This document shows, in pieces, positions 1-56,262 of a stretch of 64,000 nt of DNA. The position numbers were made by a program, and so were the translations under genes. The DNA is taken from assembly GCA_023954375.1 (NCBI GenBank), contig JAMLIC010000001.1:434001-498000 (forward strand), in the 5' to 3' direction. How positions within the stretch are numbered: position 1 is the first letter of the stretch; every line of letters starts with the position of its first letter. Under the pieces are notes generated by a model, which made no database searches, was not told the origin of the DNA, and saw only the letters and a list, made by a program, of their open reading frames with translations. The stretch comes from Planctomycetota bacterium (GTDB lineage: Bacteria > Planctomycetota > J058).

Positions 1-924
1 CGCGACGAAGGGGAGGGCGTCGAGCGCGGCCGCCACGCCCCGCCACCACACCCCGGCGGGGATCTCGGTCGAGCGCGCCGCCCCGACCGCGACGGGGTCG
101 GGCGGCGGCGGCGCGGGGTCCGCGAGGAGCGGCGCGAGGTCGTCCAGCAGGTGCTCGGCGCTCGGGCAGCGCGAGGCCTGGCGGGCGCACAGGTGGCGGT
201 AGAGGCGGTCGAGGCGCCCGTCGAGGCCGGGGACGACGTCGGACGGCACCTCGGCCCCGCCGGGCGCCTCCCCGGTGAGCATCTCGAAGAGCACGACCCC
301 GAGCGCCCACAGGTCGGCGCGCCCGTCGACCTCGCCCTCGGGGTCGCGCTGCTCGGGCGCCATGTAGCGGAGCGTGCCCACGAGCGCGTGGCCGGCCGCC
401 GAGCGCAGGCTGCCGCTCTCGAGGAGCGCGCGCGCGTCGGCCGCCGACACGAGGCCCAGCCCCAGGTCGGCCACGTAGGCCCGGCCGGCCCCGTCGACGA
501 GGATGTTCTCCGGCTTGAGGTCGCGGTGCACGACGCCGGCCGCGTGCGCGTCGCGCAGGCCCTCGGCCACGTCGCGCGTGATCCGCGCCGCCTCGCGCGG
601 GTCGAGCGGCCCCGCCGCCAGCACCTCCCGCAAGGACCGCCCCTCGACCAGGTCCATGACCAGGTAGGGCGGGTCGTGCTCCGGGTCGAGGCCCTGCACG
701 GCGACGACGTGGCGGCCCGAGACGCGCTGCAGGAGCGCCCCCTCGGCGTGCAGGCGCGCCGCCCACGCGGGGTCGTGCGGGACCTTCACGGCGGCCGCGC
801 GGTCGGTCAGGGCGTTGTGCCGCGCGCGCCACACCTGCGCGTACGCCCCGCGGCCGAGGGGCGCCTCGAGGACCCACTCGCCGAGGCGCTGGCCCGGGGC
901 GAGGGCGGGGGAGGAGTCGGTCAA
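1..924 (-). CDS. Ser/Thr protein kinase, partial (C-terminus beyond window)
   Basis: Reading the minus strand from a TTG at 924 gives a Hanks-type kinase domain. It has a glycine loop (LGRGAYAQVW), an AVKV lysine, a catalytic loop HRDLKPEN, a DLG in place of DFG, and an MAPEQ activation-segment end, followed by the ADLWALGVVLFE helix. The catalytic Asp and Lys are present, so it is probably active. It is the last gene of the operon that carries the Vps4-like ATPases, 31 nt downstream of the membrane protein. Being encoded there, it may phosphorylate operon products, but that is inference. The gene runs off the left edge. The start is uncertain: TTG at 924 is the best-placed codon, and no ATG or GTG is obvious nearby. 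Confidence 0.85.
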   Translation of the reverse strand, partial: MTDSSPALAPGQRLGEWVLEAPLGRGAYAQVWRARHNALTDRAAAVKVPHDPAWAARLHAEGALLQRVSGRHVVAVQGLDPEHDPPYLVMDLVEGRSLREVLAAGPLDPREAARITRDVAEGLRDAHAAGVVHRDLKPENILVDGAGRAYVADLGLGLVSAADARALLESGSLRSAAGHALVGTLRYMAPEQRDPEGEVDGRADLWALGVVLFEMLTGEAPGGAEVPSDVVPGLDGRLDRLYRHLCARQASRCPSAEHLLDDLAPLLADPAPPPPDPVAVGAARSTEIPAGVWWRGVAAALDALPFVA

Positions 925-955: not shown

Positions 956-1861
956 CTACAGCAACCGCCGGCCGATGTAGTCCATCGCGTCGTAGTTGTA
1001 GTAGCCCATGAGCCCGGCCGTCACCAGCAGGCCGAAGAGGCTCGCGCCCGTCGTCCCGAGCGCCAGGACCACCACCCAGAAGAGCAGCAGGTCGGCGGCG
1101 GTGAACCCGGCCAGCAGCAGGCCGTTCATCTCGTTCCTCCGCAGCTTCGCCACGCGCCGGACGACGCCGATCGCGGCCCAGGGCAGGCCCGCCGCCAGGA
1201 CGAAGAAGAGGAGGAAGCGGCCGATCAGCGACTGCTGCGAGATCCGGTAGGAGACGTAGCGCGGGTCGAGGGCGCTCTCCACCCCCTCCGAGACCTTCGG
1301 CCCGTCGGCGACGACCTTCTTCTCCTTCAGGCTGTAGAGCTGCCCCTTGAGGGCGATCCGCGCCCCGAGGCCGTCCTTGTCGGGGCCCTCGGTGAACTCG
1401 GTCACGTCGACGAACAGGATCCCGTCGATGTTGACGTTCGCCGTCTCCAGGTGGGCGACGGCCTTGATCGCGCGCTCCAGGTCGTTCGGCGCCTGGCCCG
1501 GCGCCAGGCCGGTCTTCTTGAGGAACTCGCCGGGCAACGACCCGCCGAGCTGGCGGTAGACCTCGTCCCACGTCGTCAGGCGGTACTTCGCCGTCGCCTC
1601 GACGGCGTGCGTGAGCATCTCCTGGAACTGCTGCTCCTCGTCGCGCGGGCCGCGCCCGGCGACCAGGAACAGCGCCGTGTTCACGTCGCGCGAGCGCGGC
1701 AGCTCGCGGGCGAACTCCTGGGTCGCCTGGCGGGCGATCCCGTGCATGAGCGGGGTCATCGTGCGCCGCTTCTCGCGCGTCGCGAAGTACGCGACGAGCC
1801 CGATCAGGGCCGCCACGACCGCCACGGACACGACGATCTTCCAGAGCTTGTCGAAGATCAT
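956..1861 (-). CDS. Multi-pass membrane protein of unknown function
   Basis: 301 aa, not recognised as a named family. There is one strong transmembrane helix at residues 7-27, then a soluble segment of about 180 residues with predicted mixed alpha/beta character. About three hydrophobic helices follow in the last 100 residues (LIGRFLLFFVLAAGLPW, a helix near LLLAGFTAADLLLFWVV, and one near GLLVTAGLMGYY). It lies 49 nt downstream of the SPFH/beta-propeller gene and 31 nt upstream of the kinase, on the same strand as the Vps4/Snf7-like genes. It could be the membrane partner of that system, but nothing in its sequence shows an activity. Confidence 0.85.
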   Translation of the reverse strand: MIFDKLWKIVVSVAVVAALIGLVAYFATREKRRTMTPLMHGIARQATQEFARELPRSRDVNTALFLVAGRGPRDEEQQFQEMLTHAVEATAKYRLTTWDEVYRQLGGSLPGEFLKKTGLAPGQAPNDLERAIKAVAHLETANVNIDGILFVDVTEFTEGPDKDGLGARIALKGQLYSLKEKKVVADGPKVSEGVESALDPRYVSYRISQQSLIGRFLLFFVLAAGLPWAAIGVVRRVAKLRRNEMNGLLLAGFTAADLLLFWVVVLALGTTGASLFGLLVTAGLMGYYNYDAMDYIGRRLL

Positions 1862-1910
1862 CCTCAGCCTCGCGGGCGCGGCCCGCAGTACCCCCGGTGC
1901 TCCCTCGGAC

Positions 1911-3812
1911 TCACGCCGTCGCCGGCATCATCTTGGACACGAACAGGTCCTGGACCTTGTCGGCGACCCGGATCGTCAGCCGCGGCTCGGTCTGGTGGTG
2001 CGCGTCCCAGGCGAAGACCTTGTAGCCGCTGCGCGAGACCCCGACGACGTAGTCGGCCGCCGCGTCCACCCAGCGCACCTCCTCGCGCGCCTGGTACTCG
2101 CGGTAGACGTCGCGCCGCGGCTCGGCCGCGGTGATCGTGAAGTCCTTGCTCCCGATCACGTAGAAGCCGTGCCCCGCGATCTTCGCGTGGCGCAGCATGT
2201 AGATCGGGTTCTTCTTCAGCACGCTGAACGCCTGCGGCGACGTCGGGTCGTCGAGGTGCCAGCGGTAGATCTTGCCGGCGCGGTTGCCCGCCACGAGCTC
2301 GTCGCCCTGCACGACGAACGCGGTCACCGAGTCGTCGCTGCCCTTGTAGCGGGTGGGCTTGTCGCTCCCAGTCGCCAGGTCGACCGAGAAGACGTCGGCC
2401 CCGGCCGAGAAGTACAGCCGCCCGTCGACGACCAGCGCCCCCCGCGTGGCGCTGTGCCCGCGCGTGACCTCCTCGCAGATCGCCCGCCCCGGCCCCCCCT
2501 CGACGGGCCACTCGTAGAGGCCCATCTCCGAGTGCGTCGCGTAGACGCGCCCGTCGAAGTAGGCCACCGCGTTGGCGCCGCCCTTGCCCTCGGGCTCCTT
2601 CGGGAACGGGTACTCCACGCGCGCGTCGGCCGTGAGGCGGTAGACGCCGCGCTGGGCGCCGGCGAGCACGTAGTCGGTGCGGTCGATCCGGTCGGTCCTC
2701 ACCGACCGCAGGTAGCCGAGCGCCCCGCCCTCGGTGTCGTAGACCTCCTTGGGCACCTCGGGGTGCAGGTTGGTCTTCGGGTCGAACGAGAGCACGCGCT
2801 TGCCCACGACGCAGAGGATCCGCCGCGTGATCGGGTCCTGCCCGGTCGCCTCGAGGCCGCCGCCGACGAGCTGGGCCATCCGCTGCTGGAGCTCGCGCAG
2901 CCGCCCCTCGACGCGCGACTCCATCTCGCCCAGCTGCACGTGGGCGCGCTGGTCGGGCGTGAGGTCCTTGTCGATCAGCTCCTTGATGAGCCGCGCGCGC
3001 TGCTGGTCGTCGTCCAGCATCATGACGAGCGCCTTGACGTCGTCGTCGCCCATGCGGGCGCGCAGGTCCTCGTACTGCCGCAGCCGGCGCTCCTTGCGGG
3101 CGCGGTCGGCCTCGTCGCGCAGCTCGATCCCGGCCAGCAGCGCCTGCCGGTCGAGCCCCTTCTGCAGCTCGAGCAGCTCGCCCTCGCGAGCGAGCGCCGC
3201 CGCCTTCGCCTCGGCCTCGGCGGCCGCCCGGCGGCGGGCCTCGTGCTCGCCCGAGGCGAACGCGGGGTGGACGACGTCGGTGAGGGTGCAGCCGAGCTCG
3301 AACAGCGGCTTCTTCAGCTCCTCCTGCAGGTGGACCTCGACCGCGGCGCGCAGGTCCTTCGTCGCCAGCTCGTCGGCCGCCCGCTGCGAGACGAAGAAGC
3401 GCAGGGCCTCGCGCACGTAGGGCTCGATGAACGCGCGGACGTCGGCCCGGCCGAGGCGCGGCCGGTCGCGCAGGAGCGCGCGCTCGAGCTGCTGCAGGTC
3501 GATCACGGCCGCCCGCGGGCGGAGCGTCAGCCCGAGCGACGCGGTGAAGGCCAGGTCGTCCTGGCTGCGCCCCGCCTCGAGGCCGTCGAGCTGCAGGCGG
3601 CACGACTCCTTGACGACGAAGCCCTCGCGGACGTCGTCGGTCCCGGCGCCCCCGGCCACGACGCTCGTGGCGCCGCCGTCGCCCCTGACGAGGGCCACGG
3701 TCCCCGGGGGCACGTCCAGCCGCTTGCGGATGAGCCCCGGCAGCTCCTCGCGCCGGAAGCGCAGGGCGAACTCCTCCTCGGCCGCCGCGAACCTCCCGAA
3801 GTCGACGCTCAT
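1911..3812 (-). CDS. SPFH (band 7)-like protein fused to a C-terminal beta-propeller
   Basis: 633 aa. The start is the ATG at 3812, which overlaps the stop of the upstream AAA gene (ATGA). Residues about 1-180 look like a band-7/SPFH module: a beta-rich start, then a segment with paired EPYVREALRFF and LFELGCTLTDV elements. A long charged helix follows (residues about 190-300, rich in A/E/K/R). The last 320 residues are repeated short beta-strand units (such as VYATHSEMGLYEW, LYFSAGADVFSVDL, ELVAGNRAGKIYRWHL) typical of a WD/PQQ-like propeller. There is no signal peptide or membrane helix, so it is probably cytoplasmic or peripheral. SPFH proteins organise membrane domains, and the propeller suggests a protein-interaction scaffold for the neighbouring ATPase. 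The fold assignments are inference from sequence pattern. Confidence 0.75.
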   Translation of the reverse strand: MSVDFGRFAAAEEEFALRFRREELPGLIRKRLDVPPGTVALVRGDGGATSVVAGGAGTDDVREGFVVKESCRLQLDGLEAGRSQDDLAFTASLGLTLRPRAAVIDLQQLERALLRDRPRLGRADVRAFIEPYVREALRFFVSQRAADELATKDLRAAVEVHLQEELKKPLFELGCTLTDVVHPAFASGEHEARRRAAAEAEAKAAALAREGELLELQKGLDRQALLAGIELRDEADRARKERRLRQYEDLRARMGDDDVKALVMMLDDDQQRARLIKELIDKDLTPDQRAHVQLGEMESRVEGRLRELQQRMAQLVGGGLEATGQDPITRRILCVVGKRVLSFDPKTNLHPEVPKEVYDTEGGALGYLRSVRTDRIDRTDYVLAGAQRGVYRLTADARVEYPFPKEPEGKGGANAVAYFDGRVYATHSEMGLYEWPVEGGPGRAICEEVTRGHSATRGALVVDGRLYFSAGADVFSVDLATGSDKPTRYKGSDDSVTAFVVQGDELVAGNRAGKIYRWHLDDPTSPQAFSVLKKNPIYMLRHAKIAGHGFYVIGSKDFTITAAEPRRDVYREYQAREEVRWVDAAADYVVGVSRSGYKVFAWDAHHQTEPRLTIRVADKVQDLFVSKMMPATA

Positions 3813-5026
3813 GGTGCTGACTCTGCTCCTTCGCCGGCCGGCCGGGCGGCGCCGCCCTGCCCGTAGCGCTCGAACCGCACCAGGTCGGACCTGGAGACGG
3901 AGGGGCGGTTCTGCGCCAGCGCCGCGCGCAGGTCGCCGAGGGCGATCGGCAGGTGCTCGTCCGGCCCGCCGCCGTTCTTCACCGCCCGCAGGAACACGTC
4001 GGCGGCGGCCTGCTCGCAGATGTTCTTCAGGTCCGCGCCCGAGTAGCCCTCGGTCGCCTCGGCCAGCAGGTCGAGGTCGACGTCGGGCGCGAGCGGGCGC
4101 CCGGCGAGGTTCAGCTCGAGGATCTTGCGCCGCGCCGGCGGGTCGGGCAGGCCCACGTAGACCTTCTCGTCGAACCGCCCCGGCCGCAGGACGGCCGGGT
4201 CGAGCGACCAGGGCTCGTTGGTCGCGCCGATGAACAGGAGCGGGTTCTTGCTCGCCGTGTCGAAGCCCTCGAGCTCGGCCAGGATCTGCGGGACGAGCCG
4301 CGACATGACGGCCGACTGGTTGTCGCGCCGCGCCGGCACCATGGCCTCGATCTCGTCGATGAAGATGATCGAGCGCTCGTGCTCGCGGGCCGTCTTGAAC
4401 AGCCGGTCGATGTTCTGCTCCGAGTCGCCGACCCACTTGGACATGATCTCGGACGGCTTCACCGTGAAGAACGCCGCCTCGATCTCCCCCGCCACGGCGC
4501 GGGCCAGCATGGTCTTGCCCGTCCCCGGCGGCCCCCAGAGGAGGATCCCGCCGCCCCGGCGGATGCGGTAGCGCGCCGCCGCCTCGGGGTGGGTGAACGG
4601 GTAGATCATCTTCAGCCGGATGCTCTCCTTCACGTCCTCGAGCCCGGCGAGGTCCTGGAAGCGGAGCGAGGGCTTCTCGACCGGGATGAACGCCTTCGCG
4701 TCGTCGTCCTGGTCGGCGGCCTTGCGCTTGCCCCCGGCCGGCGCGCGGCCGCCGCCGCCCTCGCCGCGCCGCTTGAGCCCGTCGGCGTCGGACGGCAGGT
4801 TCTCGTGCCAGTCGAGGAGCTTCTCCAGCGCCTCCTCGCGCGAGGCGCGGATCGCGGGCGAGGAGGCGCACTCGGCGTAGCGGATCCACGCCTCGATCGC
4901 GCTCTCGAGGTTGCGGCGCAGCGCCGGCAGGTCGCCGCGCGCCTCGGCCTGGTCGACGAGGTCGAGGTAGCGGTCGAAGCTCTGCTTGTACGACTCCGCG
5001 CGCGACTCGACCGTCTTGCGGCTCAC
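3809..5026 (-). CDS. Vps4-like AAA ATPase (second of two)
   Basis: 405 aa. Residues about 10-75 form a helical bundle resembling a MIT domain. A charged linker (80-115) precedes a single AAA module of the Vps4/katanin/spastin (meiotic) type. It has Walker A GPPGTGKT (165-172), a pore loop MSKWVG (195-200), Walker B IIFIDEIE (220-227), sensor ATNEPWSLDP, and arginine fingers in RPGRF (281-285). After the AAA lid there is a C-terminal stretch LPIALGDLRAALAQNRPSVS, like the Vps4 C-terminal helix region. In archaea and eukaryotes such ATPases disassemble ESCRT-III polymers. It follows the CHMP2-like gene by 61 nt and its stop overlaps the start of the SPFH/propeller gene, so co-translation is likely. 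FtsH and proteasomal AAA are excluded because no protease or OB domain is present. Confidence 0.85.
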   Translation of the reverse strand: MSRKTVESRAESYKQSFDRYLDLVDQAEARGDLPALRRNLESAIEAWIRYAECASSPAIRASREEALEKLLDWHENLPSDADGLKRRGEGGGGRAPAGGKRKAADQDDDAKAFIPVEKPSLRFQDLAGLEDVKESIRLKMIYPFTHPEAAARYRIRRGGGILLWGPPGTGKTMLARAVAGEIEAAFFTVKPSEIMSKWVGDSEQNIDRLFKTAREHERSIIFIDEIEAMVPARRDNQSAVMSRLVPQILAELEGFDTASKNPLLFIGATNEPWSLDPAVLRPGRFDEKVYVGLPDPPARRKILELNLAGRPLAPDVDLDLLAEATEGYSGADLKNICEQAAADVFLRAVKNGGGPDEHLPIALGDLRAALAQNRPSVSRSDLVRFERYGQGGAARPAGEGAESAP

Positions 5027-5087
5027 TCGACCCCCTCGCTCCGTCTCCCCAGGGTAGCGGGCGCCCGCGCGCCCGTCCCGGCCCGCG

Positions 5088-5696
5088 CTACGCCTTCTGC
5101 CGGTTCTTCTCGAACCGCTCGCGCAGCGAGTCGAGCCTGCTCGAGACCTTGTCCTCCATCTCCTCCGTCTCCTCGGCGACCACGGCCTCGTCGATCAGGC
5201 GGTCGATCTCCTCGTCGGAGACGAGGTCGTCGGACTGCGCCCCCTCCATGTGCGAGACCGACTCGTTGGTCTGCTCGATCATGAGCTCCATCATCTGCTG
5301 CATGGACTCGGACTGCGACACGGCCCGCTCGCAGTTCTTGTGCACCTGCGCCAGGTTGACCGACCCGTAGGACTCGGCGATCGCCTCCGAGACCGTCTCC
5401 AGCGCCCGCGCGAAGTCGGCCTGCGCCTCGGCCTGGCCCTTGAGCTGCTTGAACACCTCGAGGTTGAGCAGCTGCCGCTCCATGAGGCGCCGCGTGTAGG
5501 CGGTGCGCTTCAGGTTGGCCTTGATCACCTTGAGCTGCGTGCCGTCACCCAGCTGCCTGGCGCGCTTCGCCTTCTTGATGAACTCGCGCTCCTCGCGCTC
5601 CTGGTCGCGGATCTGCTTCTTGATGCGCGAGAGGCCCTTGCGGATCTCCATCTCGCGCTCGAGGCGCCGCTCCTCGCTGGACTTGAACAGGGCCAT
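5088..5696 (-). CDS. ESCRT-III (Vps2/CHMP2)-like coiled-coil protein
   Basis: 202 aa, close to the usual length of ESCRT-III subunits (about 200-220). It begins MALFK, an amphipathic start as in CHMP and PspA proteins. The first 110 residues are long, strongly basic helices, including a KANLKRTAYTRRLM segment that resembles the CHMP2 segment AKDLVRTRRYVRKF. The last 60 residues are acidic (SDEEIDRLIDEAVVAEE), giving the basic-N/acidic-C polarity of the family. Near the C-terminus, EDKVSSRLDSLR fits the MIM1 consensus (D/E)xxLxxRLxxL(K/R), with Val at the first Leu. This is the motif by which Vps2/CHMP1 bind the Vps4 MIT domain. It sits between the two Vps4-like ATPase genes. PspA/Vipp1 is the alternative family, but those proteins lack a MIM1. 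The start is ATG 5696. Confidence 0.82.
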   Translation of the reverse strand: MALFKSSEERRLEREMEIRKGLSRIKKQIRDQEREEREFIKKAKRARQLGDGTQLKVIKANLKRTAYTRRLMERQLLNLEVFKQLKGQAEAQADFARALETVSEAIAESYGSVNLAQVHKNCERAVSQSESMQQMMELMIEQTNESVSHMEGAQSDDLVSDEEIDRLIDEAVVAEETEEMEDKVSSRLDSLRERFEKNRQKA

Positions 5697-5745
5697 GGGC
5701 TGTCTCTCCGGGGGTCATCCTAGCGGGTCGTCGACGTTTCGTCCG

Positions 5746-7014
5746 TCACGCCTCCGCCGCGTCGCGCCAGTCGACGTAGCGCTGCACCTGCTCGGGGGTG
5801 GTCACGGGGTGGACGAGCTTCCTGGCCCGCTCGAAGTCGGCGAGCCCCAGCGGCCGCACGGTGATCGCGTGCTCCTTGACCGCCTCGAGCCCGCGGTCGA
5901 CGAGGTCCGGGATGGCCCGGTTCTCCTCGGCGACCATGCGGTTCGTGACCTCCTTGGCCAGGCTCTCGATCTCGCGCCCCGAGAGCCCCTCCGTCAGGTC
6001 GACCAGCTCGTCGAGCTCGCACGTGAGCGTGAAGCCCTTCTTGCTCAGGTGGATGTCGAGGATGGCGCGCCGCGTCTCGGGGTCGGGCAGCGGGATGAGG
6101 ATCTTCTTGTCGAACCGCGAGAGGACCGCCGGGTCGAGGTCCCAGGGGCGGTTCGTGGCCGCGATCGTGAGCACGTAGATGTCCTCGCGCCCCTTCTCGG
6201 CCAGCCCGTCGAGCTCCGAGAGGATCGTCGAGAGGATGCGCCGCTCCGTGCCCGTGTCGCCCTCGTTGCGCGAGCCGCAGAGCGACTCGAACTCGTCGAG
6301 GAAGATCACCGCCGGCGACATGTCGCGCGCCGTCCCGTAGAGCTCCGAGATGATCTTCGTCGACTCGCCGAAGTACTTCGACATGATCGACGAGACCTTC
6401 ACGTTGAAGAACACCGCCTGCTCGCGGTCGGTCGTCTTGAGCGCCCGCGACGTGGCCGCGGCCAGCAGCGTCTTGCCCGTCCCGGGCGGCCCGTAGAAGA
6501 GCACGTTGCGCCAGGTCGCCAGCTGCAGCCCCGGCGGCTTCTTCGCCAGCGACACCCCGAGCGCGTACTTGACCTCGCGCTTGGTCTCGTCGAGGCCGCC
6601 GATCTTGTCCCAGGTGATGCTCGAGTGGTGCAGGAGGCCGGTGACCGCCTGGTGGACCTCGTCCTCCGCCTTGCCGCCGGCCTTGCCGCGCCCGCGCGGG
6701 CCGCGGCCCTTGCCGTCCTCGAGGGCGCCCCCGGCCGTGGGCGTCGTCACCTCGCCGGTCGCCGTCGCCTCGGGCTTGGGGATGTCGCCCGACCGCAGCG
6801 CCGTGGCGTACTCGCGGAACTTGGCCGCGCGGGCCTTGCGCGCCGCCTCGATCTTGCGCCCGGCCGCCGCCTCGGCGTGCCGGAGCAGCAGCTGCGCCGC
6901 CCGCTCGTAGAGCTCGGCGGCCTCGGCGTCGTTGCCGGCGTCGTAGGCGGCCTTGGCCTTCGCCTCGAGGCTCCTGATGGCCTCGTCGCGCTGGCGGCTC
7001 AGGTTGACGGCCAT
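5746..7014 (-). CDS. Vps4-like MIT-AAA ATPase (first of two)
   Basis: 422 aa. Residues 5-75 match the MIT three-helix pattern well: an AxxxAxxAxxAYDAGN turn, then AAELYERAAQLLLRHAE, then a basic helix ending AKFREYATALR. This is the same arrangement as the Vps4 N-terminus. A Gly/Lys-rich linker (77-120) leads to one AAA domain with Walker A GPPGTGKT (175-182), pore loop MSKYFGES (211-218), Walker B VIFLDEFE (236-243), sensor ATNRPWDLDP and SRFDKK. The tail ADFERARKLVHPVTTPEQVQ resembles the Vps4 C-terminal helix. It is expected to bind MIM-bearing filament subunits and remodel them at the membrane. Of the two ATPases in the operon this has the clearer MIT domain. It is flanked by two filament-like coiled-coil genes at gaps of 34 and 49 nt. 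Confidence 0.87.
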   Translation of the reverse strand: MAVNLSRQRDEAIRSLEAKAKAAYDAGNDAEAAELYERAAQLLLRHAEAAAGRKIEAARKARAAKFREYATALRSGDIPKPEATATGEVTTPTAGGALEDGKGRGPRGRGKAGGKAEDEVHQAVTGLLHHSSITWDKIGGLDETKREVKYALGVSLAKKPPGLQLATWRNVLFYGPPGTGKTLLAAATSRALKTTDREQAVFFNVKVSSIMSKYFGESTKIISELYGTARDMSPAVIFLDEFESLCGSRNEGDTGTERRILSTILSELDGLAEKGREDIYVLTIAATNRPWDLDPAVLSRFDKKILIPLPDPETRRAILDIHLSKKGFTLTCELDELVDLTEGLSGREIESLAKEVTNRMVAEENRAIPDLVDRGLEAVKEHAITVRPLGLADFERARKLVHPVTTPEQVQRYVDWRDAAEA

Positions 7015-7048
7015 GCGTCCTCGGCCCTCCTGCTCCCCCTGTGGTGGT

Positions 7049-7687
7049 TCACGACCCCTCCGCCTCGCCCGTGGCCTCGCGGTCGAGCTTCTCGCGCAGC
7101 GCGTGCTCGCGCTCCTCGGCCGTCTCGACGTCGCCGCCCTCCTCGGCCGCGATGATCTCGTCCAGCTCGGAGAGGAGCTTGTCCTTGTCGGGGTCCTTCT
7201 CGTCCGAGATCTCCGTGTCCTCGAGCTCGAGGTTGAGGTCCTCGAGCGTCGCGCCCAGCGCGTCGAGGTAGGCCTCCTCGTCGACCGCCGTGCCGCGGAG
7301 CTTCTCGTCGAGCCCGCTCATCTGGACCTTCTGCATGAGCTCGCGCACGCGCATCTTGTTCGAGGTCTTCTCCAGGCGCTCGAGCCCGCGCAGGTAGCGC
7401 TTGAGGCCGACCGTCTCGAGGTTCAGCACCTGGCTCTCCCGGCGGGCGAGCGCCTGGTCGAGCTTGATCTGCTGCAGGTCCTCGTAGAGGAAGTCGACCT
7501 CCTCCTTGTTGTTCTCCTTGCGCGCCCCCTTGAGGCGCGCGAGCGTCTCGTTGCGCTTCTGCACCAGGCGGCGGATCTCCATCTGCTTCTTGCGGCGCTC
7601 CCGCTCCACGCCCTTGAGCGCAATCTTGAGGTCGCGCGAGGTGACCTCGCGGTCCTCGCGGTTGAACAGCCTGTCGAAGATCCCCAC
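7049..7687 (-). CDS. Snf7/PspA-like coiled-coil protein
   Basis: 212 aa from the GTG at 7687. A longer reading from 7732 adds only a low-complexity Arg/Gly leader. The protein then begins MGIFDRLFNRED, the short amphipathic start shared with PspA, Vipp1 and CHMP proteins. Residues about 15-130 are almost entirely heptad-like charged helix (KQMEIRRLVQKRNETLARL and following). The C-terminal third is acidic (LNLELEDTEISDEKDPDKDK, then SELDEIIAAEE), reproducing the basic-to-acidic polarity of ESCRT-III subunits. No enzymatic motif is present. It lies between a second filament-like gene and the MIT-AAA gene, suggesting co-assembly. A clear MIM1 or MIM2 motif is not visible, so family membership rests on architecture and context. 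Confidence 0.7.
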   Translation of the reverse strand: MGIFDRLFNREDREVTSRDLKIALKGVERERRKKQMEIRRLVQKRNETLARLKGARKENNKEEVDFLYEDLQQIKLDQALARRESQVLNLETVGLKRYLRGLERLEKTSNKMRVRELMQKVQMSGLDEKLRGTAVDEEAYLDALGATLEDLNLELEDTEISDEKDPDKDKLLSELDEIIAAEEGGDVETAEEREHALREKLDREATGEAEGS

Positions 7688-7744
7688 CAGCGCCTCCTCG
7701 CGGCGCGGGCCGCGCCCGCGCCCGCCGCTCACGCGGCGCGTGTG

Positions 7745-8575
7745 TTACTCGACCGTGGCCTCGCGGCCCTCGTCCTCGTCGTCCTCGGGCTCCTGCGCGT
7801 CGAGCTCGGCCAGCTCCTCCTCGATCGAGCGCCGCCGCGGCCGCTCGGGCGCGGCCGGCTCCTTCGGCGCGGCCTCGACCTTCCGCGGCTCGGGCGCCTT
7901 GACCGGCTGCGCCCGCGCCGCTGCCCGCGCCGCCATGACCTCGCGCTCGATCGCCTCGAGCTCGCGGTCGACCTCCTCCTCGTCGGGCTCCTCGACGGGG
8001 GTGGTCTCGACCTCGTCGGCGCGCGCCTCGGCCAGGATCTCGCGCTCGAGGTCGGCCAGCGCCCGGCGCTCGGCGGAGTCCTCCATGACCGAGTCCATGC
8101 CGTGGGCCACCTTGGCCGCGTTCATGATGTCGCGGTGCTTCTCGAGCTTCTCCTCGTAGTCGACCGCGATCTCCTCGATCTGGCCCTGGTTGACCCGCTT
8201 GAGCTCCATGGCCTGCATCTCGGTGATGCGGTCGAAGAGCCCCAGGTGCAGGTCGATGTTGTCCTGGTGGATGCGGTGGCGCTTCTCCAGCGAGTCCATG
8301 CGCCGGCGCAGGCGCCGGATCTCGCGCAGGGCCGACATCTTCTCCCGCTCCGACAGGCCGCCGCCGAGCACGCGCTCCTTGTGGGCCGCCTCCATGCGGC
8401 CGAGCTTCTCGATGTCGCGCTCGATCTCGCGCGCCTCGACCTCGTTCTGCGTGGCGATCTGGTCGAGGCCGGCCCGCAGCTCCTCCACGTCCTTGACGTT
8501 GGTGAGCAGGAGCCGCGTCTCCTCGGGGAGCGACGCGCGGCTGAACAGCGCCTTGACCTTGTCGAACAGGCTCAT
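7745..8575 (-). CDS. Snf7/PspA-like coiled-coil protein with Pro-rich, acidic tail
   Basis: 276 aa. It starts MSLFDKVKALFSRAS, a probable amphipathic membrane-binding helix. Residues 20-180 are continuous coiled coil (TQNEVEAREIERDIEKLGRM; REIRRLRRRMDSLEKRHRIH). They end in MDSVMEDSAERRALADLEREI, which resembles the helix 4/5 region of CHMP proteins. A Pro/Ala/Glu-rich linker (about 205-250) precedes SIEEELAELDAQE and an acidic end. It is the first filament-like gene after the MerR/winged-helix gene (10-nt gap) and lies 57 nt upstream of the next one. It may be the membrane-nucleating subunit of the set, but this is inference. A generic PspA/IM30 protein is the alternative; the long C-terminal extension is unlike typical PspA. 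Confidence 0.7.
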   Translation of the reverse strand: MSLFDKVKALFSRASLPEETRLLLTNVKDVEELRAGLDQIATQNEVEAREIERDIEKLGRMEAAHKERVLGGGLSEREKMSALREIRRLRRRMDSLEKRHRIHQDNIDLHLGLFDRITEMQAMELKRVNQGQIEEIAVDYEEKLEKHRDIMNAAKVAHGMDSVMEDSAERRALADLEREILAEARADEVETTPVEEPDEEEVDRELEAIEREVMAARAAARAQPVKAPEPRKVEAAPKEPAAPERPRRRSIEEELAELDAQEPEDDEDEGREATVE

Positions 8576-8585
8576 CGCGCGCCCC

Positions 8586-10097
8586 CTACAGCCGCCGCCG
8601 CTTGACGATCTCGCGCCCGCCCGAGACCTGCACCTGCAGCTCCCCGTCCTCCGCCAGGAGCTCGTCGAGCGCGGCGCGGATGCACTCGGGGGGCAGGTCG
8701 AGGTCCTCGACCAGGTTGTTCAGGATCAGGAACTCGCCCTTGGGCTTGAGGTGCTCGCGCATGGCGTCCCGCGCGCGGTCGACCTTCTCGCGGTCGGTCT
8801 CGGGGTCGAACACCCGCTCGACGCCGCCCCAGCGCGGGTCCGCGACGAGGTGCCGCCGCCAGGCCGAGCTGCCCGCGCTCTCCACCAGGCAGACGAGCAG
8901 GTTGCGGCGGACCGGGACGCGCGCGCGCGCGTCCCGGCTCCAGCCCACCGTCGACAGCATGCCGACGTAGTGGAAGACGTCGTCGCGCAGCGGCAGGGCG
9001 TCGAGCGCCCGCTCCACCTCGAGGGGGCCGAGCGGGTCGTCGGCCCAGCGCTGCCTGACGAACGCCTCGAGCGGCGAGAGCGAGAGCGCCGAGACGACGA
9101 CCTTCAGGTCGCCGCGCCCGAACAGCCCGCGCTGGAAGACCTGGAACTCGCGCGTCTCGTCGAGCGGGATCAGGTCGAGGAGCGCCCGGTCGAAGACGCG
9201 GTGCCGCTTCATGACGTCGACGATCTCGCCGGCGCGGTCGCGCTTGAGGAGCGACCGCTCGCGCGGCCCCGACTTGTAGCCCTTGCCGTCGAGCGGGCAG
9301 TGGACGCGGCCCAGCCGCTCGAAGCCCTGCTCGAAGCGGCCGATGAACATCTCCTCGAGGGCGCGGGCCCGCTCGACGCTGACCGCGCCCTCGGGCGCCG
9401 GCGGCGGGGCCTCGCGCGCGACGACCGGCCGGGCGACGATCACCGGCGCCTGGAGCGGCGGCTGGAGCGCGGTCGGGCGCGGCGGGGGGGCCGGGCTCGC
9501 CGGCTCGGGCCCTGGTGCGGAGACGCTCACCTGCTGCTCTCCTCCGTCCTGCGCCTGGCTGGCCAGGATCGCCGCGCGGGGCGGGGGCGACCAGGCCTCA
9601 CCGTCCCAGCGCCCCTTGGTGCGGATCGCGTCGACCAGGTCGCACAGGCGCACCTGGCTCGGCTGCGGCGTGACCCCCAGCCGGCCGGTGAGCAGGTCGA
9701 AGAACGCGTCGATCAGCGCCTGGCGCTCGATCGGCTTGAGCGCCCCGTCCTTGCTGCACTCCTCGTAGAGGACGGAGAGCTTGTCGGCGAGGTGGGCGGG
9801 GTCCTCCTGGAGGAGGCCCAGCACCGCGCGGATGTCCGTGAGGGCGCGCGCGAAGCGCGTCTTCATCAGGTGGATCGCCAGGAGGACGTTGAGGATCCAC
9901 TCCTCCTCGTAGACCGGGGTCTTGCCCACCTTCTTGGGCGGGGGCAGGATCCCCTCGTCGACGTAGAAGCGGAGGGTCCGCACCGTCATGCCGAAGCCGA
10001 GGTCCCGGCTCTTCTTCTCGATCTCGGGGTAGCCGATGAACCTGGCCTCCTCCTCCTTCAGGATGCGGCCGATCGTCCGCAACTTGTTCTGGGTCAT
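8586..10097 (-). CDS. MerR-type DNA-binding protein with C-terminal winged-helix-like domain
   Basis: 503 aa. Residues about 15-90 are a MerR-type helix-turn-helix (IEKKSRDLGFGMTVRTLRFYVDEGI, then a beta wing and YEEEWILNVLLAIHLMK). A helical segment (95-160) and a Pro/Ala-rich linker (about 180-240) separate it from a C-terminal region of about 250 residues. The last 60 residues read as a winged helix (LILNNLVEDLDLPPECIRAALDELLAE). It is the promoter-proximal gene of the Vps4/Snf7-like operon and 10 nt upstream of the first filament-like gene, so it may control the operon. Winged-helix domains are also structural parts of archaeal and eukaryotic ESCRT-II and CdvA-type proteins, so a direct structural role is possible. 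ATG 10097 is the start. Confidence 0.75.
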   Translation of the reverse strand: MTQNKLRTIGRILKEEEARFIGYPEIEKKSRDLGFGMTVRTLRFYVDEGILPPPKKVGKTPVYEEEWILNVLLAIHLMKTRFARALTDIRAVLGLLQEDPAHLADKLSVLYEECSKDGALKPIERQALIDAFFDLLTGRLGVTPQPSQVRLCDLVDAIRTKGRWDGEAWSPPPRAAILASQAQDGGEQQVSVSAPGPEPASPAPPPRPTALQPPLQAPVIVARPVVAREAPPPAPEGAVSVERARALEEMFIGRFEQGFERLGRVHCPLDGKGYKSGPRERSLLKRDRAGEIVDVMKRHRVFDRALLDLIPLDETREFQVFQRGLFGRGDLKVVVSALSLSPLEAFVRQRWADDPLGPLEVERALDALPLRDDVFHYVGMLSTVGWSRDARARVPVRRNLLVCLVESAGSSAWRRHLVADPRWGGVERVFDPETDREKVDRARDAMREHLKPKGEFLILNNLVEDLDLPPECIRAALDELLAEDGELQVQVSGGREIVKRRRL

Positions 10098-10178
10098 GGA
10101 CCGCGCCCCGCGCCCCGGCCGCTCGTGGCCGGCGCACTTAACAGTTCTGACAGTCCTGCCAGTGACGCCTCACGCTGG

Positions 10179-10207
10179 ACAGTAGCGCCGGGAAGGTCGG
10201 GTGTCAA
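10179..10207 (-). promoter_or_regulatory. Sigma-70-type promoter for the Vps4/Snf7-like operon
   Basis: On the minus strand a perfect -35 TTGACA (10202-10207) is followed after 17 bp by TACTGT (10179-10184). Transcription would start near 10172, leaving a leader of about 75 nt to the ATG at 10097. That leader holds repeated CTGnCAG half-palindromes (10147-10162), possible operator or RNA-structure elements. No other promoter-like site of this quality was seen within the operon. Confidence 0.6.
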
Positions 10208-10239
10208 TCCGAAGAAGACGTCGTCATCTGCTGCTGATT

Positions 10240-10330
10240 GGACACGAAGGCAACGAAGGTGCACGGAGGTCACGGAGGCCCCAGGAGAGAACCTCCGTGA
10301 CCTCCGTGGACCTTCGTTGCCTCCGTGTCC
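10240..10330. repeat. Long inverted repeat, 'cacggagg' family, copy 1
   Basis: Two 39-bp arms (10240-10278 and 10292-10330) are inverted copies matching at 37 of 39 positions, separated by 13 bp. The arms are built from repeated ACGGAGG/ACGAAGG units. The element lies in the 415-bp gap between the divergent operon promoter and the giant regulator gene. Two related elements occur at 41674-41742 and 56171-56262. It could act as a terminator, a structured RNA or a palindromic mobile (REP-like) element. Confidence 0.85.
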
Positions 10331-10512
10331 CATTCCTCTGCCCGAGCGGCCGCCCATGTCCTCGGACGCCGGTTGCACGGACCGATGGCCCCGGGTACGC
10401 TGCGTTTTCCAAAATTGGGTACGCGGGCTCGCGCTGGTCTTACTCCCGGGCCCGTCGGTGCTCGCGGCTAAAGTGACGTCGGCACGTCGCGTCTCGGGGG
10501 GCGCTCTTCCGG

Positions 10513-17194
<6,682 letters not shown>

Positions 17195-41673: not shown

Positions 41674-41742
41674 CACGGAGGACACGGAGGGAGGAGGACA
41701 CGAGCCTCGCTCGACCCTCGTCTTCCCTCCGTGTCCTCCGTG
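41674..41742. repeat. 'cacggagg' inverted repeat, copy 2
   Basis: Nineteen-bp arms at 41674-41692 and 41724-41742 are inverse complements. It lies between the convergent tatA and SPFH genes, so it may be a bidirectional terminator. It shares its core CACGGAGGACACGGAGG with copies 1 and 3. Confidence 0.8.
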
Positions 41743-56170: not shown

Positions 56171-56262
56171 GGTCAACCACGGAGGACACGGAGGGAAAGA
56201 GAGGCAGGGAAGCCGACTTCTTGCTCCGCCTCCGTCCGTGTCCTCCGTGCCTCCGTGGTGAA
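56171..56262. repeat. 'cacggagg' inverted repeat, copy 3
   Basis: Inverted arms around 56177-56194 and 56231-56260 share the core CACGGAGGACACGGAGG. It lies between two convergent genes (lipoprotein and PHP protein), like copy 2. Confidence 0.78.

What the first reader, a model, noticed from the sequence alone, without database searches (positions are those of the whole stretch)
956..10207. Bacterial operon with the parts list of an ESCRT-III/Vps4 machine
One promoter and one strand carry three filament-type coiled-coil genes (7745-8575, 7049-7687, 5088-5696), two Vps4-like AAA ATPases (5746-7014, 3809-5026), an SPFH/beta-propeller protein, a membrane protein, a kinase and a MerR/winged-helix protein. 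Seen: gene order, short gaps, a 4-bp overlap, and shared amphipathic starts (MALFK, MGIFDRLF, MSLFDKV). Known: MIT-AAA ATPases paired with MIM-bearing ESCRT-III proteins are described from archaea and eukaryotes; the usual bacterial relatives are PspA and Vipp1. Inferred: this is a complete membrane-remodelling system in a bacterium.
Basis: partly seen in the sequence, partly recalled or inferred. Interest (0 to 1): 0.95.

Follow-up and report, generated by a model that had tools for sequence, protein, structure and literature searches.

The report
Bacterial ESCRT-III/Vps4 membrane-remodelling operon
A gene cluster found in many planctomycete bacteria encodes relatives of the ESCRT-III filament protein and of the Vps4-type motor that archaea and eukaryotes use to cut and mend membranes, a pairing that a published survey describes as confined to those two domains, and it is predicted to reshape or repair the bacterial cell membrane.

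Summary
The genes are real, co-directional, tightly packed and conserved in Planctomycetota. E (5088-5696) is an ESCRT-III homologue: Snf7 matches 16 of 18 family members, the 8 PDB sequences its larger profile hits (E<=5) are all ESCRT-III, and it aligns with the CHMP1/2/3 type, not PspA. D (5746-7014) groups with archaeal CdvC and eukaryotic Vps4/katanin/spastin (95/90 and 97/92 in two trees) and shares their two-residue SRH deletion. F (3809-5026) falls outside that clade. B and C are likely divergent ESCRT-III-like paralogues. Of 392 sampled genomes of the phylum E is in 55, D in 44, both in 42 (39 on one contig). A smaller version sits on a Chloroflexota plasmid. Makarova 2024 confines ESCRT-III plus Vps4 to archaea and eukaryotes; Ravi 2024 already notes bacterial Snf7-clade proteins next to other AAA+ ATPases. 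Membrane remodelling or repair is inferred; division in this FtsZ-less phylum is a rival. Function needs experiments.

The parts
8586..10097 (-). A: MerR-type HTH at the N-terminus plus a conserved ~270-residue C-terminal domain without a Pfam family; first gene of the set
   Evidence: Pfam MerR_1 3.7e-06; MerR_1 in 11 of 29 members, no family for the C-terminal part; A in 67 of 80 loci
7745..8575 (-). B: likely ESCRT-III-like filament protein (predicted helices 3-12, 30-71, 76-125, 130-157, 167-189, then a loose tail)
   Evidence: model pLDDT 78.8, pTM 0.52; Foldseek ranks 1-4 Vipp1, rank 7 PspA, none at E<=0.001; B vs C profiles E 1.6e-4, Prob 51; no Pfam family at E<=1
7049..7687 (-). C: likely ESCRT-III-like filament protein, GTG start MGIFDRLF
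   Evidence: C vs E profiles E 4e-4, Prob 35; C vs B; vs CHMP4B/CHMP6 Prob 31, coiled-coil control Prob 8; no Pfam family at E<=1
5746..7014 (-). D: Vps4/meiotic-clade AAA ATPase with a helical N-domain (MIT- or TPR-like) and a Vps4_C-type C-terminus
   Evidence: AAA 1.2e-34; best single-domain PDB row shown is VPS4B, 172.7 bits over 15-359; trees; SRH deletion; Vps4_C in 15 of 16 members at E<=1
5088..5696 (-). E: ESCRT-III protein, closest to the CHMP1/2/3 (A) type
   Evidence: Snf7 1.1e-3, 16 of 18 members, best 1.6e-5; PDB profile hits all ESCRT-III; A-type Prob 96, E 4.6e-9; model and Foldseek
3809..5026 (-). F: second AAA ATPase, near but outside the Vps4/meiotic clade, Cdc48-type SRH
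   Evidence: AAA 2.5e-41, Vps4_C 22.5 bits over cut-off 21.3; trees; SRH
1911..3812 (-). G: SPFH/Band 7 domain followed by a likely beta-propeller; overlaps F by 4 bases
   Evidence: Band_7 24.9 bits over cut-off 23.6; PQQ_2 0.052 below cut-off; sequence
956..1861 (-). H: likely membrane protein (hydrophobic segments near both ends, read by eye), no known family
   Evidence: ORF and sequence; no Pfam family over cut-off; H in 34 of 80 loci
1..924 (-). Ser/Thr protein kinase (406 residues from a TTG start, continues beyond the window edge), conserved partner of H
   Evidence: full reading from L031; a kinase ORF starts within 300 bases of H's end, or overlaps it, on the same strand in 27 of 34 loci with H

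Best explanation
The operon encodes a bacterial counterpart of the ESCRT-III/Vps4 machine (a clear ESCRT-III protein E, a Vps4-clade AAA ATPase D, a related ATPase F, and two likely ESCRT-III-like proteins B and C) that would remodel or repair the cytoplasmic membrane by ATP-driven turnover of membrane-bound filaments. Shown by calls: homology of E to ESCRT-III, placement of D with CdvC/Vps4/katanin, Walker motifs of D, conserved operon. Predicted: the ESCRT-III-type helix order of E and B, the ESCRT-III nature of C. [quoted passage not shown] the SPFH protein G and membrane protein H mark or anchor the site; D (and perhaps F), as hexamers, grip the C-terminal tails of B, C and E through their helical N-domains and pull subunits out, constricting or clearing the filament; the kinase and the MerR-type protein A set when this happens. 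The membrane served is most likely the invaginated inner membrane of planctomycetes.
For: D: with CdvC and eukaryotic Vps4/katanin/spastin 95/90 and 97/92 after adding Chloroflexota relatives and four other plasmid AAA proteins, which fall outside; AU rejects D with FtsH (0.0128), Cdc48 D1 (0.006), PAN (0.0154); the xPGRF insert is absent in 36 of 37 D and 120 of 120 CdvC and present in 37 of 37 F. Co-occurrence: E in 55, D in 44, both in 42 of 392 sampled genomes; 39 of 42 on one contig. Of 49 loci with enough flank 47 carry at least one more filament-like gene and 43 carry D or F. Chlorohelix plasmid: C-like (7.5e-22), coiled coil, D-like, kinase.
Against: Weak Snf7 matches are not specific alone: the family also rings below cut-off (E<=0.1) in 6 of 14 control genomes, E. 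coli and B. subtilis among them, and the window's E is itself below cut-off. The 18-member E profile put FtsA (0.14) level with SNF7 (0.15). MIT: Pfam shows weak TPR_2 (7 of 32) and no MIT among the 25 of 49 families shown; the profile match to CdvC MIT (Prob 83, E 9.1e-6) has no profile-level TPR control, and single sequences barely separate D (18.2) from TPR pieces (up to 17.7). Strict MIM1 0 of 54 E tails. B and C have no PDB sequence hit to ESCRT-III. E's model is moderate (pLDDT 72, pTM 0.48), no Foldseek hit reaches E<=0.001, and by VIA-align bMERB and SNX chains rank above or level with ESCRT-III. AU does not reject D with F (0.21) nor F with CdvC+meiotic without D (0.199) and is borderline for D with Cdc48 D2 (0.05). 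13 of 55 genomes with E lack D, 6 of 49 loci have neither ATPase nearby. The window's own D scores 13.1 bits to Vps4_C, below cut-off.
Confidence: 0.78

Rival explanations
1. A cytokinesis machine: in the FtsZ-less planctomycetes the operon constricts or severs the division neck, as CdvB/CdvC do in Sulfolobus.
For: No FtsZ over the curated cut-off in 392 sampled genomes of the phylum, 13 of 14 control genomes ring; FtsZ-less division is stated for the phylum (PMC6952346, passages); closest ATPase kin include CdvC.
Against: E is in only 55 of 392 genomes and 38 of 267 genera, so it cannot be the phylum's general divisome; FtsZ over cut-off is missing with or without it. Division genes were not searched for in the neighbourhood.
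Confidence: 0.2
2. An envelope-stress system of the PspA/Vipp1 kind that gained an ATPase: the filament proteins are PspA-like and the AAA proteins act as in Psp-type neighbourhoods.
For: B's Foldseek ranks 1-4 are Vipp1 and rank 7 PspA; an SPFH protein (YdjI) accompanies PspA, per PMC10936438 (passage); Ravi et al. 2024 report bacterial PspA and Snf7-clade proteins next to AAA+ ATPases (PMC11237479, passages).
Against: E matches A-type ESCRT-III and not E. coli PspA; no PspA_IM30 match for the window's B, C or E at E<=1; the genome has separate PspA genes, two over cut-off; D groups with Vps4.
Confidence: 0.12
3. A kinase/AAA/SPFH signalling or conflict device in which the coiled-coil proteins are scaffolds and the ESCRT likeness is partly convergent.
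For: Kinases flank both the planctomycete and the Chlorohelix loci; helical hairpins match many folds; B and C lack sequence matches.
Against: Specific, near full-length E match to ESCRT-III and D's place in the Vps4/meiotic clade on separate evidence.
Confidence: 0.08
4. Archaeal or eukaryotic contamination or a recent transfer limited to this genome.
For: The assembly is listed with 5.93% contamination.
Against: E is found in many genomes at graded identity that follows kinship (98% same genus, 81-88% family, 56-60% order), with the same gene order; GC of 0.71-0.74 like the rest of the window; 596-kb contig; two chromosome records, CP070718.1 and CP054190.1, hold E.
Confidence: 0.01

Closest known systems
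Archaeal Cdv system (CdvB ESCRT-III, CdvC Vps4)
   Same: ESCRT-III plus Vps4-clade ATPase in one gene neighbourhood; D and CdvC share a clade, the short SRH and the NxPW motif
   Different: A bacterium; A-type-like E; extra ATPase F, SPFH protein, kinase, MerR protein; MIT not shown; CdvA was not searched for
Asgard/eukaryotic ESCRT-III A- and B-types with Vps4
   Same: E aligns over 166 columns with CHMP1/2/3; several filament-like genes per locus; A/B split as described in PMC11804906 (passages)
   Different: B and C only weakly similar, C nearer the B-type (Prob 31); no ESCRT-I/II or ubiquitin family among the Pfam matches of the operon
Bacterial PspA/Vipp1
   Same: ESCRT-III superfamily; SPFH partner; B's model resembles Vipp1
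   Different: No PspA_IM30 match; several paralogues with a Vps4-clade ATPase beside them; PspA is separate in this genome
Bacterial Vps4-like transfers and PspA/Snf7-AAA+ neighbourhoods of Ravi et al. 2024 (PMC11237479; passages seen, supplement not read)
   Same: It already reports bacterial PspA and Snf7-clade proteins next to AAA+ ATPases and suggests ATP-dependent membrane remodelling
   Different: There the Vps4-like transfers lack Snf7 (replaced by a TPR/6TM protein), and the AAA+ beside PspA has two domains, the first inactive; planctomycetes are not mentioned in the main text (0 occurrences). Whether any of its loci is this system could not be checked

Membership tests
ESCRT-III (Snf7 family) | Sequence match to the Snf7 profile | tested here: met
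   E: 16 of 18 members, best 1.6e-5; window E 19.1 bits, below the 27.3 cut-off; PF03357 is listed as precomputed for several relatives. B, C: no Snf7 match (one search shows 25 of 49 families)
ESCRT-III (Snf7 family) | Helix alpha1/alpha2 hairpin, alpha4, alpha5 | tested here: met
   Predicted for E (helices 7-49, 52-109, 115-150, 161-201) and B; Snf7 core rmsd 1.7 over 102 residues of E. C not modelled. Hairpins are common, so this alone is weak
ESCRT-III (Snf7 family) | C-terminal MIM motif that binds Vps4 MIT | tested here: inconclusive
   Strict MIM1 0 of 54; relaxed core 7 of 54 (shuffle mean 0.05), looser form 18 of 54 (0.67); related tails are not independent; other MIM types not tested
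ESCRT-III (Snf7 family) | Polymerises on and deforms membranes | not testable with these tools
   Needs biochemistry
Vps4 / meiotic-clade AAA ATPase (D) | AAA domain inside the Vps4/meiotic clade | tested here: met
   95/90, 97/92; AU rejects FtsH, Cdc48 D1, PAN; Cdc48 D2 borderline; a D+F clade is not rejected; no Asgard Vps4 in the tree
Vps4 / meiotic-clade AAA ATPase (D) | Short SRH without the xPGR insert | tested here: met
   36 of 37 D, 119 of 120 relatives of the Chlorohelix ATPase and 120 of 120 CdvC lack it
Vps4 / meiotic-clade AAA ATPase (D) | N-terminal MIT domain | tested here: inconclusive
   hhalign to CdvC MIT Prob 83, E 9.1e-6; Pfam lists weak TPR, no MIT among the families shown; controls barely separate at single-sequence level
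Vps4 / meiotic-clade AAA ATPase (D) | Vps4_C C-terminal helix | tested here: met
   15 of 16 members at E<=1, best 5.3e-6; window D itself 0.1, below cut-off
Vps4 / meiotic-clade AAA ATPase (F) | AAA domain inside the clade, short SRH | tested here: not met
   37 of 37 F keep the xPGRF insert; sister to the clade together with one own paralogue or unresolved outside it
PspA/Vipp1 | PspA_IM30 profile match | tested here: not met
   None for the window's B, C, E at E<=1
SPFH/Band 7 (G) | Band_7 domain over cut-off | tested here: met
   24.9 bits, cut-off 23.6

The most novel reading that the evidence does not exclude
Bacteria have a true ESCRT-III/Vps4 machine of their own: a lineage of Vps4-clade ATPases spanning Planctomycetota and Chloroflexota, as deep as archaeal CdvC and the eukaryotic Vps4/katanin/spastin group, working with A-type-like ESCRT-III and divergent paralogues as composite filaments. 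ESCRT-III with Vps4 would then not be an archaeal-eukaryotic invention but either date back before the split of the domains or have crossed between them early.
Probability: 0.55. Interest if true: 0.95.

Novelty: new variant of a known kind. Interest (0 to 1): 0.87.

Why it matters
Makarova et al. [quoted passage not shown] This operon speaks against both for part of a large bacterial phylum and touches a second; Ravi et al. 2024 had noted bacterial Snf7-clade proteins next to AAA+ ATPases of other build. It bears on the age and origin of ESCRT, on the elaborate membranes of planctomycetes and on life without FtsZ, and D relatives in Chloroflexota such as Levilinea saccharolytica (name as given by a source; recalled as cultivated) may make it testable.

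Tried and rejected
Best PDB match of D by total bits is a Cdc48-type protein (255.7): rejected as a sum of two domains (112.7 + 142.3); the best single-domain row among the 60 shown is VPS4B (172.7). MIT identity by Pfam: not obtained. Strict MIM1: none. C and B by PDB sequence: nothing ESCRT-III. A's C-terminal domain as ESCRT-II-like winged helix: no Pfam support, not modelled (the two fold jobs went to E and B). The H family: only weak LpoB/CsgG-type hits among 20 mixed H and G rows. E to B by profile directly: E 0.07, no link. E-like gene in the eight Chlorohelix genes tested: none. FtsZ absence as proof of a division role: rejected, it is absent over cut-off with or without E. VIA-align rows for B are mostly common hairpins. 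Promoter scan empty. Literature: the listings of searches (9 of 10 allowed; one search showed 25 of 170 papers) held no paper on a planctomycete or Chloroflexota ESCRT-III/Vps4 system; the library holds open-licence PMC papers only, so absence from print is not proven. Papers were seen as listings, abstracts or passages; none was read whole, supplements not at all.

Rows dropped: tree 2 leaves out 13 rows of tree 1 (two long own AAA rows, ATAD1, three CdvC, three D, four F) and adds 8. L025 was left out of D, and L015, L023, L024, L028, L030 out of F, because their best hit was the other ATPase. The C iteration drew from 762 ORFs upstream of E only and may drift among coiled coils. L047 is not among the 79 loci counted for E because no E label was assigned there. 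L073 holds withheld bases, so its count of filament genes may be low. The AU and tree tests use typed references.
Full report
WHAT IS THERE. The window is part of a 596-kb contig of a 10.1-Mb assembly. Its same-genus relative G001 carries the locus on a contig of the same length (27,617 bases) as the named record JAHBXY010000124.1, Planctomycetota isolate ACE_PLA31, so the window is planctomycete. On the minus strand eight genes follow each other, here called A to H, then a kinase: gaps of 10 to 61 bases and one 4-base overlap. The set is conserved: in loci fetched from 17 other genomes A to H appear in the same order, complete in several of the nearest and with gaps and losses in the far ones or at contig ends. 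In the GTDB collection 107 stretches encode a relative of E and 80 were kept; 73 of the 80 titles name planctomycete groups (group membership of names such as Kuenenia and Humisphaera recalled), 4 name no group, and one each names Sumerlaeota, Hydrogenedentes and Proteobacteria. In these 80 loci the profiles (E<=1e-4) find A in 67, F in 39, B in 38, D in 37, G in 36, H in 34 and C in 33. An iterated search of 762 ORFs upstream of E finds 111 C/B-like ORFs in 70 loci. Of 49 loci with at least 5 kb upstream and 4 kb downstream, 47 have one to three filament-like genes besides E and 43 have D, F or both; 6 have neither ATPase nearby.

B AND C ARE LIKELY PARALOGUES OF THE SAME FOLD. The window's B and C have no Pfam family at E<=1; scattered weak hits among their relatives do not include Snf7 (one search shows 25 of 49 families). 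Neither has an ESCRT-III hit among PDB sequences. C aligns with E (pairwise E 4e-4, Prob 35) and with B (1.6e-4, Prob 51); E and B do not align directly. C leans to CHMP4B/CHMP6 (Prob 31; CHMP1-3 16) and B to CHMP1-3 (22) or CHMP4B/6 (12), while a coiled-coil control reached 8 with C. B's model (pLDDT 78.8, pTM 0.52) shows a short N-terminal helix, a 30-71/76-125 hairpin, 130-157, 167-189 and a loose tail; Foldseek gives Vipp1 at ranks 1-4 and PspA at 7, none at E 0.001, and VIA-align gives many common hairpins. I call them likely ESCRT-III-like, not shown.

D IS A VPS4-CLADE ATPASE, F IS NOT. D's best single-domain PDB row among the 60 shown is VPS4B, 172.7 bits over residues 15-359. In a 52-row tree D (13 rows, 100/100) joins CdvC and eukaryotic Vps4, katanin, spastin, fidgetin-like and ATAD1 with 95/90; F, with one own paralogue, is sister to that clade (97/92). 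In a 47-row tree with four Chloroflexota relatives and plasmid AAA proteins of Streptomyces, Microvirga, Haloplanus and Vibrio, D plus Chloroflexota (100/100) again joins CdvC and the eukaryotes (97/92), the others and F stay outside; two of the added rows are very long. AU rejects D with FtsH, Cdc48 D1 and PAN (0.0128, 0.006, 0.0154), is borderline for Cdc48 D2 (0.05), and does not reject D with F (0.21) or F with CdvC and eukaryotes without D (0.199). Apart from the tree, the SRH of D reads TNRPWDLDPAVLSRFDKK, two residues shorter than the xPGRF form; 36 of 37 D, 119 of 120 relatives of the Chlorohelix ATPase, 120 of 120 CdvC and all six eukaryotic rows lack the insert, while 37 of 37 F and the Cdc48, FtsH, NSF and PAN rows match the insert pattern. 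NxPW is in 37 of 37 D, 36 of 37 F, 120 of 120 CdvC and 3 of the 6 eukaryotic rows, and also in one own AAA protein outside the operon. That these two features mark clades is my reading of this alignment and recall. Walker A is intact in 37 of 37 D and 36 of 37 F; the Walker B pattern used fits 36 of 37 D and 27 of 37 F. Vps4_C matches 15 of 16 D members at E<=1, best 5.3e-6; the window's own D only weakly, F over cut-off.

WHAT IS NOT SHOWN. MIT: the helical N-domains of D and F resemble each other (Prob 96.5) and CdvC's MIT (Prob 83 and 71), but Pfam offers weak TPR hits and no MIT among the 25 of 49 families shown, and single-sequence TPR pieces score nearly as well as single D. MIM: the strict MIM1 pattern is in 0 of 54 E tails; a relaxed core in 7 (shuffle mean 0.05, maximum 2) and a looser form in 18 (0.67, maximum 4), among related sequences. 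Polymerisation, membrane binding and the D-E contact are untested.

ACCESSORY GENES. G has a Band_7 domain over cut-off and a likely propeller. A has a MerR-type match in 11 of 29 members; its conserved C-terminal part has no family. H has no family. A kinase starts near or within H's end in 27 of 34 loci with H. On the plasmid of Candidatus Chlorohelix allophototropha (Chloroflexota) a C-like gene (E 7.5e-22 to the iterated C profile), a coiled-coil gene and a D homologue (48% over residues 118-422) are followed by a kinase with WD40 repeats, and more kinases lie upstream. Further relatives of that ATPase carry names of Anaerolineae, Anaerolineales and Levilinea saccharolytica; their neighbourhoods could not be read.

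SPREAD. E is in 18 of 39 genomes of the nearest set, own included, and in 55 of 392 sampled genomes of the phylum, 38 of 267 genera; D (E<=1e-80) in 44 of 392. Both are in 42, E alone in 13, D alone in 2; in 39 of the 42 they share a contig, 38 within 2.5 kb, and in 3 they lie on different contigs of fragmented assemblies. Fisher's p of 2e-42 ignores kinship. No genome of 392 has FtsZ over the cut-off; 10 have weak matches, none of them with E or D.

HOW IT LIKELY WORKS. Filaments of B, C and E form on the inner membrane face, G and H mark or anchor the place, D and perhaps F extract subunits by their tails with ATP, the kinase and A regulate. Only homology and gene order are shown; the rest follows from what is established for ESCRT-III and Vps4 and is inference. 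A role in general membrane remodelling or repair fits the patchy spread, the SPFH partner and the regulators better than a divisome role, which remains a rival.

AGAINST WHAT IS KNOWN. Makarova et al. [quoted passage not shown] A 2023 review says bacteria lack a clear Vps4 homologue and tend to have a single PspA-type protein (PMC7615534, passages). Ravi et al. 2024 are the nearest prior report: Vps4-like transfers to bacteria without Snf7, and bacterial PspA and Snf7-clade proteins next to AAA+ ATPases, with a two-domain AAA+ beside PspA and a suggested ATP-dependent membrane remodelling (PMC11237479, passages; supplement not read, so overlap with this system cannot be excluded). PMC11804906 describes A- and B-type ESCRT-III in Asgard archaea and eukaryotes (passages). 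The listings of nine literature searches showed no account of this system. It is a new variant of a known kind: same core, new domain of life, new partners.

Noticed in passing
window 10237-10333: A palindrome with 42-base arms (93% complementary) lies upstream of the operon; 80 matches on both strands (about 40 places, since it is palindromic) occur in the same genome, and further copies of a 16-base piece of its arm lie paired at 41674-41742 and 56178-56249.
   Followed up: partly
window 10513-17194: The divergent neighbour starts as a kinase in one frame (from 10513) and continues as TPR-GGDEF-GAF-sigma54-activator-HTH in another (12593-17194); the change of frame falls near 12.6-12.8 kb, an apparent frameshift or assembly error.
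   Followed up: partly
L130 1-4655 (Chlorohelix plasmid): A minimal version of the system in Chloroflexota: C-like gene, coiled-coil gene, D-type ATPase, WD40 kinase.
   Followed up: yes
L110 10001-10585 (CP054190.1): In this chromosome record E stands with none of the other seven families recognised in the 20-kb stretch.
   Followed up: no
L115 (G000:C23): A further AAA protein of the same genome resembles F (NxPW plus xPGRF) outside the operon.
   Followed up: no
G021, G051, G088, G104, G105, G120, G149, G160, G209, G260: Ten genomes of the phylum hold weak FtsZ-model matches below cut-off, in a phylum described as FtsZ-less.
   Followed up: no
G255, G281: Two genomes have a D-type ATPase but no E at the thresholds used.
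   Followed up: no
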